In this document: positions 45,152-48,750 of the stretch, in pieces
Layout: each line of letters begins with the position of its first letter
How positions within the stretch are numbered: the first letter of the stretch is position 1
NCBI GenBank assembly: GCA_018296165.2
Contig: JACKQL020000049.1
Location: 124,001 to 188,000 of the forward strand
Direction: 5' to 3'
Length of the DNA: 64,000 bases
Source: Termitomyces sp. T153
Lineage: Eukaryota; Basidiomycota; Agaricomycetes; Agaricales; Lyophyllaceae
Position numbers and translations under genes: made by a program
The notes under the pieces: model-generated
The model's input: the letters and a program-made list of their open reading frames with translations, nothing else
Told to the model about the DNA's origin: nothing
Database searches by the model: none

Positions 45152-45164
45152 TCACCCCCTCTTC
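45152..45164 (-). promoter_or_regulatory. Polypurine tract of B2
   Basis: Minus-strand GAAGAGGGGGTGA lies directly before the 3' LTR. It marks the 3' boundary of the internal region and so proves that gene D lies inside the element. Confidence 0.75.
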
Positions 45165-45514
45165 AGTGTTGAGACCTTCGAGATGTGGGGCACAGTTCAG
45201 GGATTGGTGGGGTGTGGGAATCGAAGTTGAGCAATATTGATCAGACCACAGTAGTGGTGGCAGTGTGAGGAACAAAGTTGAAGCATGGCCACCACTTCTC
45301 AGGGGGTTCTTCCCTAGTCATTGAAAAGGGTCAGACGTACTCTGGAGTTCCCAAACTTTCCCAATGTCGTCTTCTGCATATTCTCCAGCAGCATCCCCAT
45401 TCCCATTGGCACATACCTCAACTTCTTCTTTGGAGGACTCTGAGGGTTGGCAAGACCGTAGGCGGGTGCAGGCAATGTACTGTAGTTGTAAGTACTGTCT
45501 CTTGCTCATCATGG

Positions 45515-47054
45515 CTAGAGTGTTGAATAAGTCCCATCAGAGTTGTCAGTGGTGGTGGCAGGCCCCTTGGGGCTTTCGATGGGGGAGGCTCCAGCATAGT
45601 CAGTGGGGGAAGTGGCCCTCACTTCTCATTCCAGGCCTGGTATTGCCTCTAGGGTGGTCCAGCCTATCCCTATGGGGTCGAGAGTTGTGCAGGCAGACAT
45701 GATGCCGGAGTACTTTGCAGAGGCCGTGGGGCAAGCAAGAGGTCCCCTGATATTAGAGTGGTGTCAGGTGGTGGCCCTGGTGTATCATTGGCATGTCCCT
45801 TCCTTATCAAGCTAACCCACGTCTCTAGTGCATGTCCTATACCTGGCAGGGTGAACAGTACAAGTTTGAGGAGCCCGTGATGGGAGTGTGGTGGGACACG
45901 TCAGTGTGTCTCCCATGTCACTCATGGCACAAGAAGTGCTCTGTCACTCTGAGTTGGTGTGCTGCCTGCATTGCGGCAGAGCAGGGGTGGGACTGCAAGT
46001 GGGTTGCTATGCAGTTGGAGGAGGGTCGGAGGAGTAGGGTCTCAGGGAGGGGTTCCGGAGTAGAGGGGGGAGTTGGCATGAGGTGGCCTCCAATGAAAGT
46101 TGGGCCCCTGTAGGGTGGATGGAAGGAGGGGGCCCCCGCAATGCATGATAAGAGTAAACAGAGGGCATCCCCCTCACCAGAGGCAGGGCCTAGCAAGCAG
46201 GCATGGGAGGAGCTGGTGATGGCAGGCCCTCTGGGTCCCACAGTGTATTCCCCAACTTCCAGGGCCTTGGTTGAGCAGTCTGCAGGAGGGTCATGGTCGG
46301 TTGCCAAGGCTTTCCTGCAGCATTGGGTGGAGGAGTTGGAGAGGTTATTGGCCACACGCGGGGAGGAAGTTCATAGGGTGGGGGAGGAGAGGGACAGGCT
46401 TTGGAGGGAACTGGACAGGGCTCGGAAAGAACGGGACTTAGCACATAGGGATAAGGGCATCGCCATGGGGACCACTATGGAGTGACTGTCACAGCTTCAA
46501 GAGCTGCAAGCACATATGGCACTGTTGGAGGCATGGGTGGAGGCAGCAGGGCAACGATTGGAGGGGTTGGGGGCATGGGGGACTCAGTGGGGATTTAGTG
46601 CAGAGGTGACCCAAGTGACAGTGGAGAGGGTGCGGTGGTGGGAAGAGTAGCTTGCCAATGAGGCAGCCTCAGGGCAGCGGAGGGTGCTCCATAAGTGCTC
46701 CCTTCATCTCCCATTTACTACAAGCTGATATTTGATTCTACAGACTGAGCCAGGAAGCACCGCATCCTCCTCAACAGAGCATCAGTGGCACTGGAGTCCA
46801 TCCATGATGGGTTGGTGAGGATGCCTGGGGATCTCCCACTGGAGTTGGGGCAGGGAGTCACACAGATGGGGCATCTGCTGGTGGAACATCGGCAGAGGGC
46901 AATGGCAGACTCTGGAGTATGGTGGGAGGTGGCAATGGACATGGCGGAGCTGCTCCTGAGGCATCCTGAAGTTCTGGCAATGGTAGTAGTGCAGCTGGAG
47001 GTGGATCTGGTGGGGAGGATAGCAGAGGTGGGTTCAGAGGGGGAGGGGGAGTAG
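45515..47054 (+). pseudogene. Antisense passenger gene D of family B, copy 2 (best copy)
   Basis: On the strand opposite to gag-pol, open pieces at 45603-45815, 45832-46113, 46141-46485 and 46785-47054 follow in order. They encode PEYFAEAVGQARGPLILEWC; a Cys cluster (CLPCHSWHKKC then CAAC, residues near 45909-45985); a Gly/Pro linker; a charged coiled-coil segment (RVGEERDRLWRELDRARKER); and a C-terminal part (MPGDLPLELGQGVTQMGHLL). An intron probably ends at 46741: TGAT branch-like site, pyrimidines, CTACAG. Similar repeated proteins of unknown function exist, as I recall, in Agaricomycete genomes. Two or three stops break this copy. A DNA- or nucleic-acid-binding role is a guess from the Cys cluster. 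Confidence 0.6.
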
Positions 47055-47284
47055 GGGCTTTCTGGATTCTAGTTTCTCATTGCCCTGCACTCCTCTATTT
47101 CTGTATTTCTTCCTTGTAGCTTTTGTGAATATTGGACTTCTTGTGCTTCTGCTGAGCATGAGAAGTTTTTAGAATGAGTGAGGGGTAGAGTAAGTGAAAA
47201 AATGTAGGGGAGGTACTCATGGAAGTTGAATCCCTGATAGATCCAGAGGTGGGGGTTATGCCCACGGATGCCATCTGCACTTGC

Positions 47285-48750
47285 TAGTCCCAGGGGTCCC
47301 AGGGCTTGGTGGGGTGTTGTTGATGGAAGTCCTGGAGTTTGTTGGGGCTCTGTTGAGGTTTTTTTGGAGCTCTCATGTGTCATCCTCAGGTCCATAGCCC
47401 TTCCAGCAGACTAAGTACTGGGGCTGTCCATGGACCAAGCAGGAGTTAAGGATCTGGTCAACCTCATAGCAGTACTTGTCCTTGACTTTGATGGGGGGTA
47501 TTCAGCTGTGGTGCTGGCCAGGGAAGGGGTCCGGGGCATGTTTTTTGAGGAATTGAATGTGGAACACAGGGTGGAGGCCTTCCAAGCCCAGAGGTAGGTC
47601 AAGTTTGTAGGTGTGTGTGGAGACCTTCCAGAGGACTTTGAAAGGACTAAGGCATTTGTGGTCTAGTTTGATGGAGGGCCTCCAGGTCTTGAGGTTGTGT
47701 TGATTGAGCCAAACCAAGGTGCCAGGGGGCCAGTCAGGGGTGGGATCATGTTGGGCATCAGTATGTTTGGAGTAGGCTTGATTGGTAGTGTTGATCTCAT
47801 CCCAGAGGAATTGGTGAAGGGATTGGAGGTCCTCAGCAACTTCATGGGCAATGTAGGAGGGGATGTCCTTCAAGAACAGGGTGAGTTGGGGGTTGTAGCC
47901 TTTGTTGGCATAGAAGAGGGAGACTCCGGTGGCAGAGTGGAGCATGTTGTTGTAGGTGAATTTGGTGAGGAGGAGTTCTGTGTGCTAGTCATTCTGTAAA
48001 TAGTTAATGTATAGGCAGAGATACTGCTCCAGCATCTGGTTCACTTGTTCTGTTTGTCCATTGGTCTCTGGGTGATAGGCAGTGGAGAGGCTGGTTTTGA
48101 TCTTGAGTGCCTTGCATAGCAATTGCCAAAAGTGGGATACAAACAGGGGTCCATGGTTGGAGATAATGTCATCTGGGAGTCTGTGCTTGGAGAATACATG
48201 TTTGAGGAATAGTTTGGCAAACTCAGGAGCATTGTTGGTGGTGTAGCAGGGGATGAAGAGGGCTTGCTTGGTGAGGTGGCAAACAATGACGAGGATTGTG
48301 TTGAAACCTTCGGAGTTGGGGAGTTCGACAATATGATCCATCAATAGGGAGGACCAGGGGCAGCAGCCGATGGGAAGGGGTTTCAATAATCCATGGGGGC
48401 AGTGATGGGCTACCTTGGCCTGGAGGCAAGGTTTGCAGGCCCTTATGTATTGTGTGACATCCTTCTTCATTCCTGGCCAAAAGGAAGTCCAGGAGATGAG
48501 TTGAAGGGTCTTATGAATTTCTGAGTGCCCCTAGAGCTTATGGTTGTGGTGTTGCCGGAGTATGTCGAGGTGGATGGACTTGTGGTCTGGAGTGTAAATT
48601 CATCCACTCCAGAGCAGGAGGTAGTGGTCTGGAGACAGCAAAAAGGGATTCTCGGCACTTGACTCATTAGGGTTGTTGCAGGGGTCATGCTGGATGAAGA
48701 AAGAGTCCGGGGGTGAATTTCTGATTTGCTGGAGGATTCCTTCTTCATTT
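47285..48750 (-). pseudogene. B2 integrase and chromodomain
   Basis: The H2C2 region lies near 48560-48480. The core frame 48470-47985 has MKKDVTQYIRACKPCLQAK, DHIVELPNSEGFNTILVIVC, HGPLFVSHFWQLLCKAL and STAYHPETNGQTEQVNQML, with the catalytic Asp and Glu positions present. The C-terminal frame 47945-47502 has GVSLFYANKGYNPQL and LVWLNQHNLKTWRPS. The chromodomain at 47490-47290 reads EVDQILNSC and QYLVCWKGYGPEDDT, then a TGA where Trp is expected. It inserts element cDNA into chromatin, with the chromodomain expected to read a histone mark. Confidence 0.85.

What the first reader, a model, noticed from the sequence alone, without database searches (positions are those of the whole stretch)
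45152..47290. A chromovirus family that carries an antisense passenger gene (gene D) next to its 3' LTR
In B2, whose borders are fixed by LTRs, polypurine tract and an ATTGC duplication, gene D lies between the chromodomain and the 3' LTR on the strand opposite to gag-pol. The same D sequence lies antisense just upstream of a polypurine tract and LTR at 19090-20348, and next to the chromodomain end in B1 (78-1296). Three copies with one layout argue against chance. D encodes a Cys cluster, a coiled coil and a conserved C-terminal block. Antisense extra genes are known in some plant retroelements, but I know of no description of this one in fungi.
Basis: partly seen in the sequence, partly recalled or inferred. 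Interest (0 to 1): 0.88.

Follow-up and report, generated by a model that had tools for sequence, protein, structure and literature searches.

The report
Antisense spliced gene in fungal retrotransposons
Some jumping genes in what looks like a fungus carry, written backwards next to one end, a real protein-coding gene with introns that selection has preserved, and a related set of elements appears to have kept this gene after losing the usual ones.

Summary
The 40 best-scoring integrase/chromodomain ends (of 879 candidates) all have D sequence beside them, at least 7 of them shortened; in 25 of 30 fetched D copies the LTR abuts D. D is a gene: one natural young copy (L033) gives an unedited spliced frame of 515 aa. 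Three introns with splice signals on the antisense strand sit at the same places in families B2 and C, two of them also in B1 and E. dN/dS between B2 and C copies is 0.21; for exon 3 it is 0.19, against 0.33-1.31 in the other five frames. The window's own copy has 6 internal stops. The protein has the Cys spacing of a fungal Zn2Cys6 cluster (Pfam match weak), a likely coiled coil and a helical C-terminus. New here: a second LTR family carries D but, where read, lacks gag-pol; D is constrained there and the tested filler is not. [quoted passage not shown] Best reading: an antisense-expressed accessory gene, probably a DNA-binding regulator; function and transcription are inferred.

The parts
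43971..45151 (-). 3' LTR of B2 (element on - strand)
   Evidence: direct repeat with 61789-62729, TGTCA..TGACA ends
61789..62729 (-). 5' LTR of B2
43966..43970 (.). target-site duplication ATTGC (left)
62730..62734 (.). target-site duplication ATTGC (right)
45152..45166 (-). polypurine tract next to 3' LTR; also the start of the D 5' region
   Evidence: aligned across families
45233..45243 (+). AATATTGATCA, identical in four families between LTR and D start codon; candidate promoter or binding site
45364..45487 (+). D exon 1 (MSSS...AMY.S)
45488..45540 (+). D intron 1 (GTAAGT...CAG)
45541..45779 (+). D exon 2 (one stop in this copy)
45780..45828 (+). D intron 2 (GTGTAT in this copy, GTGAGT in C and B1; branch-like CTAAC; TAG)
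45829..46690 (+). D exon 3: Cys6 cluster, linker, probable coiled coil (three stops and two lost Cys in this copy)
46691..46743 (+). D intron 3 (donor ATAAGT here, GTAAGT in other copies; branch-like CTGAT; CAG)
46744..47054 (+). D exon 4: C-terminal block, predicted helical, and stop codon
47292..48461 (-). integrase and chromodomain end of B2 pol
   Evidence: Pfam rve and Chromo on the homologous ORF of L032
58448..59782 (-). gag ORF of B2
   Evidence: Pfam Retrotrans_gag
77..1301 (+). D exons 3-4 of B1 (decayed)
19106..19924 (-). distant D copy (40-42% aa identity) beside an LTR at 20348-21419

Best explanation
D is a genuine accessory gene of a chromovirus lineage. Shown: in the copies examined it sits at one fixed site (between the chromodomain end and the 3' LTR) on the strand opposite to gag-pol; it has intron-like interruptions with splice signals on that strand; its protein is under purifying selection in autonomous families and also in a related LTR family that, where read, lacks gag-pol. 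Inferred: it is transcribed from the 3' LTR side as an antisense spliced mRNA. Introns survive in a retroelement this way round, because the genomic RNA carries them as unspliceable complement. Inferred: the ~515-aa protein (Cys6 cluster, Ser/Pro/Arg-rich linker, coiled coil, helical C-terminus) is a dimeric DNA-binding protein that acts on the elements that carry it, most likely as a regulator of the element, the conserved AATATTGATCA (part of a palindrome in family C) 5' of D being a candidate site.
For: Fixed site: 40 of 40 scored pol-end matches (of 879 candidates) have D beside them; 6 of the 15 fetched ones and at least one of the 25 listed ones (C80) are shortened. Layout: LTR abuts D in 25 of 30 loci, pol end beside D in 29 of 30 (my count). 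Natural open copies: 27 of 133 listed matches report a 418-425 aa frame and no stop inside the match (my count); L033 gives 515 aa without any edit. Introns: three places shared by B2 and C, two of them by B1 and E. Selection: dN/dS 0.21 (210 B2 x C pairs, range 0.17-0.28); exon 3: 0.19 in frame against 0.33-1.31 in the other five, and 0 of 2030 stop codons in 7 C copies against 25-45; transversions 30/17/83 by codon position for L033 with L019, chi-square p 4e-14. E family: dN/dS 0.19-0.30 between subfamilies. The last four Cys of the cluster are invariant in 9 of 9 D pieces. Motif: 1243 exact genome matches against 20 for the reversed-pattern control; a C copy counts twice.
Against: No RNA data: antisense transcription and splicing are not observed. 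The Zn cluster is not established: Pfam Zn_clus matches 4 of 9 proteins, best E 0.016; the two scores shown (8.6 and 11 bits) are below the cut-off of 21. No DNA-binding evidence; a scan for CGG-type half-site spacing next to D showed nothing clear. The motif may be promoter, part of the plus-strand priming region, or conserved by descent. The structural model of the C-terminus is low confidence (pLDDT 64). dN/dS within families is 0.43-0.46. One E pair (L060 with L062) shows no significant codon bias (p 0.29). B2 intron 2 has a weak donor (GTGYRT) and B2 intron 1 no clear branch site.
Confidence: 0.6

Rival explanations
1. D is an anti-silencing or counter-defence protein: it protects the element from host methylation or RNA silencing, rather than regulating the LTR.
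For: Copies show CpG to TpG/CpA differences, so the host probably methylates them. A gag-pol-less family keeping D fits a protein that helps whichever copy makes it.
Against: No similarity to a known suppressor in Pfam. A diffusible suppressor made by autonomous copies would serve non-autonomous ones without their own gene.
Confidence: 0.2
2. D is a structural or packaging protein of the particle (a gag-like or nucleic-acid chaperone), kept by non-autonomous elements for their own packaging.
For: Probable coiled coil and Cys cluster; kept where gag-pol was not found.
Against: Opposite strand to gag, with introns on that strand; the Cys spacing is not the CCHC knuckle of gag (recalled).
Confidence: 0.12
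3. The antisense RNA itself is the functional product (noncoding or dsRNA trigger) and the reading frame is incidental.
For: Antisense transcripts of retroelements can act this way (PMC7264820, passages).
Against: dN/dS about 0.2 in the D frame; introns diverge more (transversions 0.19) than coding positions 1 and 2 (0.056, 0.038).
Confidence: 0.03
4. D is a host gene fragment captured once by a few copies, or the gene of a nested transposon.
For: Nested insertions of other elements occur in this window.
Against: Present at 40 of 40 scored pol ends; found beside integrase-chromodomain ends only 37% identical to the C family (L061).
Confidence: 0.05

Closest known systems
Boty-like chromovirus with antisense gene brtn (Botrytis cinerea, Sclerotinia; Zhao 2011, pmid 21802103, not read; seen in PMC7264820 section 5 and passages of PMC4227169 and PMC8365987)
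   Different: Ascomycete; homology of brtn to D not tested (no sequence held); introns or a gag-pol-less family with the gene are not mentioned in what I read.
Retand elements of plants with antisense TRP28 ORF (PMC11963269; passages, some from its abstract)
   Same: Antisense ORF between pol and 3' LTR, predicted DNA-binding, in 97% of clusters; some elements non-autonomous.
   Different: Non-chromovirus lineage; TRP28 (PF04195) not found in 9 D proteins; the word 'intron' does not occur in that paper's main text.
Grande gene23, RIRE2, PvRetro13 antisense genes (PMC7264820, section 5 and passages)
   Same: Antisense accessory gene at the same site; the Grande protein is nuclear and its gene has its own promoter.
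   Different: Plants; no sequence comparison made here.
HTLV-1 HBZ (name and nature recalled; HTLV antisense promoter and genes are mentioned in PMC7264820 and PMC11963269 passages)
   Same: Works like it in plan: antisense transcript from the 3' LTR side encoding a coiled-coil nuclear factor.
   Different: bZIP protein of an animal retrovirus; no relation claimed.
Large retrotransposon derivatives (LARDs), reported in Laccaria bicolor (PMC3411680, passages)
   Same: LTR elements of that class in a basidiomycete.
   Different: The E family here keeps one gene, D, under purifying selection.

Membership tests
chromovirus (Ty3/Gypsy with chromodomain) | integrase followed by a chromodomain | tested here: met
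   Pfam rve E 7.7e-10 and Chromo E 2.2e-15 on the L032 ORF; B1 and B2 are 74 and 75% identical to it over 390 aa
chromovirus (Ty3/Gypsy with chromodomain) | direct LTRs and target duplication | tested here: met
   B2:
[quoted passage not shown]
   40 of 40 scored pol ends; LTR abuts D in 25 of 30 loci
antisense additional ORF between pol and 3' LTR (aORF-3R) | antisense transcript | not testable with these tools
   no RNA data
Zn2Cys6 (Gal4-type) DNA-binding domain | C-x2-C-x6-C-x(5-12)-C-x2-C-x(6-8)-C (pattern recalled) | tested here: inconclusive
   spacing C2C6C15C2C6C, loop longer than usual; Pfam Zn_clus in 4 of 9 members, best E 0.016
Retand TRP28 antisense protein | PF04195 domain | tested here: not met
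   not among the families matched by 9 D proteins at E up to 5
brtn of Boty | sequence homology | not tested
LARD (non-autonomous LTR element) | LTRs without gag-pol coding | tested here: met
   one E copy: no tblastx match of its filler to the window's gag-pol stretches and no retroelement domain in 7 filler ORFs, 5 from this copy and 2 from sister copies; for others only distances (31 of 40 leaders have D 2.4-5.0 kb away)

The most novel reading that the evidence does not exclude
A gag-pol-less LTR retrotransposon family has discarded everything except an antisense, intron-bearing DNA-binding factor and has kept it functional while amplifying. The factor must then work preferentially on the element that encodes it: a retrotransposon satellite reduced to its own regulator, sharing leader and LTR similarity with an autonomous chromovirus that carries the same gene.
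Probability: 0.35. Interest if true: 0.82.

Novelty: new variant of a known kind. Interest (0 to 1): 0.62.

Why it matters
Antisense genes of LTR elements are known, but their role is an open question. Here the codon test, the introns on the antisense strand and the retention of D in elements without gag-pol give three lines of evidence that the gene is functional. The gag-pol-less family separates the gene from the rest of the element, which makes its function easier to test.

Tried and rejected
Rfam on the window at gathering thresholds: nothing. A recalled resemblance to predicted proteins of other mushrooms could not be tested and is not used.

PDB profile search: 7 matches at E 0.037-0.51, all in the coiled-coil part. 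Pfam also gave weak matches to KIF21A_4th (E 0.024) and TMF_TATA_bd (0.11). AlphaFold2 on the window's exon-4 piece alone: four helices, low confidence (pLDDT 64), so no fold search was run. A first reading of the E copy on C5 as having inverted terminal repeats was rejected: the junction of the inverted LTR with D spans only this copy among 42 listed matches (best 40 of 3487 candidates scored), and two LTR matches in the same orientation flank the copy. CGG half-site scan: no clear signal. Literature: in the listings I saw Boty/brtn and plant cases and no description of D or of a gag-pol-less family carrying such a gene. PMC2864245, PMC3248453 and PMC3411680 were searched by terms only ('antisense' count 0 in each); a figure legend in PMC2864245 lists an additional ORF of unknown function, not pursued.

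Full report
Setting. The window lies in a 72.4 Mb genome (G000, contig C49:124001-188000), which is searchable but unnamed. I take the host to be a fungus, probably a basidiomycete; that is inference from the elements and the short introns, and no species was identified.

Observation. Element B2 is bounded by LTRs at 43971-45151 and 61789-62729 with an ATTGC duplication. D is on the + strand between the 3' LTR and the integrase-chromodomain end (47292-48461, - strand). B1 shows the same order at 77-1301 and 1521-2690. A related element at about 11.87-17.95 kb has LTRs of about 358 bases, a pol end about 100 bases from the LTR, and no D match; so D is not general to such elements.

Is D fixed in the family? 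A DNA search with D scored the best 40 of 1510 candidate places and gave 41 matches. In the 30 loci fetched, the pol end lies beside D in 29 (all but L006) and the LTR abuts D directly in 25; L006, L011, L023, L029 and L030 are cut or displaced (my count). The reverse test used the pol end as query: the best 40 of 879 candidates were scored. For 25 of these 40, D lies next to them in the match lists, one of them (C80) without the last part of D. The other 15 were fetched, and 15 of 15 have D sequence at the pol end: 9 running to the end of the fetched stretch and 6 cut short by insertion or deletion. So 40 of 40 scored, at least 7 shortened.

Is D a gene? The B2-family copies are decayed, largely by CpG change. 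A protein search found a younger sister family (C): 27 of 133 listed matches report a frame of 418-425 aa and no stop inside the match (counted by eye). Seven C copies were fetched (L031-L037). Aligning 30 B2 copies, 7 C copies and B1 shows three introns on the D strand. Donors are GTAAGT or GTGAGT at introns 1 and 3 (often lost by CpG decay in B2); at intron 2 they are GTGAGT in C and B1 but the weaker GTGYRT in B2. Branch-like CTRAY motifs are seen except in B2 intron 1 and some C copies at intron 2, and all end in AG. B1 shows introns 2 and 3 only, because the window starts within its exon 2. Splicing the unedited copy L033 gives 515 aa; the window's own B2 copy, spliced the same way, has 6 internal stops. 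Introns 2 and 3 recur at the same places in the 8 of 12 E copies printed. Introns are more divergent than coding positions: transversions B2 x C are 0.056, 0.038 and 0.160 at codon positions 1, 2, 3 and 0.190 in introns. dN/dS is 0.21 over 210 B2 x C pairs (0.17-0.28); single-pair chi-square p runs from 4e-14 (L033 with L019) to 2e-7 (L033 with B1). For exon 3 the D frame gives 0.19 and the other frames 0.33 to 1.31; the 0.33 frame is the reverse frame whose third positions coincide with those of D, and it holds 29 stops in the C copies against 0 in the D frame. Within families the value is 0.43 (C) and 0.46 (E1), as expected for recent copies under decay.

What the protein looks like. Nine natural D pieces share C-x2-C-x6-C-x15-C-x2-C-x3-H-x-K-C, then L-x-W-x3-C and EQGW-x3-WV-x2-QL; the last four Cys of the cluster are invariant and one or both of the first two are lost in L053 and L058. 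Pfam Zn_clus matches 4 of 9 members, best E 0.016, and coiled-coil families match weakly. The Glu/Arg-rich part matches coiled coils in the PDB at chance level. The C-terminal block is predicted as four helices at low confidence.

A family without gag-pol. A search with the zinc piece of the third copy scored 150 of 891 candidates. I fetched 18 of the 150, chosen because no stop lay in the match: 5 have an integrase-chromodomain end beside D (L057, L061, L066, L067, L068), 13 do not within about 1.4 kb. Two of the 13 (L054, L058) hold a short pol-like remnant of about 70-200 bases. One of the 13 (L060) was followed further on C5: D, then about 3.3 kb whose only match to the window's gag-pol stretches is a 34-base leader beside the 5' LTR, then an LTR. 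Seven ORFs from this filler and two sister copies gave no retroelement domain; one weak match, Nrap E 0.025, is below its cut-off. Two LTR matches in the same orientation flank the copy, plus a local inverted LTR copy beside D. Of 40 scored leader matches (909 candidates), 31 have D on the same strand at 2.4-5.0 kb (median 4.1 kb) and 9 have none near in the lists. Copies on C4, C5, C6 and C94 show both LTRs, leader and D within about 7-8 kb in the match lists. Between E subfamilies (12 of the 13 loci aligned, L054 left out) dN/dS of D is 0.19-0.30, and transversions by codon position are 0.093/0.051/0.156 (E1 x L053) while the filler is flat at about 0.15. Only about 1.1 of the 3.3 kb of filler was tested this way. 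For E1 x E2 the periodicity is weak (0.038/0.033/0.057), and for L060 with L062 alone it is not significant (p 0.29). I read the interior of one copy only; the rest rests on distances.

Depth. D and integrase-chromodomain identities to the C family fall roughly together: 84 and 86% (L067), 83 and 82% (L068), 63 and 76% (L057), 53-61 and 75-80% (three B2 copies), 56 and 74% (B1), 43 and 37% (L061); L066, at 59 and 86%, departs from this.

Cis element. The stretch between LTR and D start codon aligns across B2, C, E and the third copy, with AATATTGATCA identical in the 6 sequences aligned. It is exact in 24 of 26 B2 copies that hold the stretch, is part of a perfect 16-base palindrome TGATCAATATTGATCA in the C copies, and occurs 1243 times in the genome against 20 for the reversed pattern, a C copy counting twice. 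It may be promoter or binding site; it also lies near the polypurine tract, so a role in priming cannot be excluded.

Mechanism. Shown: site, introns by sequence, selection, retention where gag-pol was not found. Inferred: antisense mRNA, DNA binding, action on the element. Introns on the antisense strand are not spliced from the genomic RNA and so survive reverse transcription; a sense gene would tend to lose them. This is an argument from mechanism, not a measurement. That a family without gag-pol kept D under selection suggests that D acts best for the copy that makes it; a freely shared protein would not need to be encoded there.

Known context. [quoted passage not shown] Boty's gag-pol has a chromodomain and brtn lies with it (PMC4227169, passage; also PMC8365987, passage). 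Retand elements of plants carry an antisense gene predicted to bind DNA and include non-autonomous members (PMC11963269, passages). D is therefore a new variant of a known kind: a different protein as far as tested, introns, and a sister family that seems reduced to this gene.

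Noticed in passing
51761-57602: A LINE-like element with two long ORFs (628 and 1340 aa; the second with reverse transcriptase and endonuclease domains and a weak RNase H match) sits between pol and gag matches of B2.
   Followed up: partly
11865-17952: A chromovirus-related element with about 358-base LTRs (89% alike) and pol end about 100 bases from the LTR, without D; relative fragment at 41117-42718.
   Followed up: partly
1-4079 and 10517-11871: B1 looks rearranged: the match to B2 pol ends at 3267, a match to B2 gag starts at 3270, and more pol lies at 10517-11871.
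   Followed up: no
43971-45151: The 3' LTR of B2 is 240 bases longer than its 5' LTR, with an internal direct repeat of about 150 bases, 70% alike.
   Followed up: no
L072 121-1141 (G000:C5:1455470-1456490): One E copy has an inverted LTR copy between its LTR and D, a copy-specific rearrangement or assembly effect.
   Followed up: partly
L001-L030: Old copies differ largely by CpG to TpG/CpA change, suggesting host cytosine methylation of these elements (not quantified).
   Followed up: no
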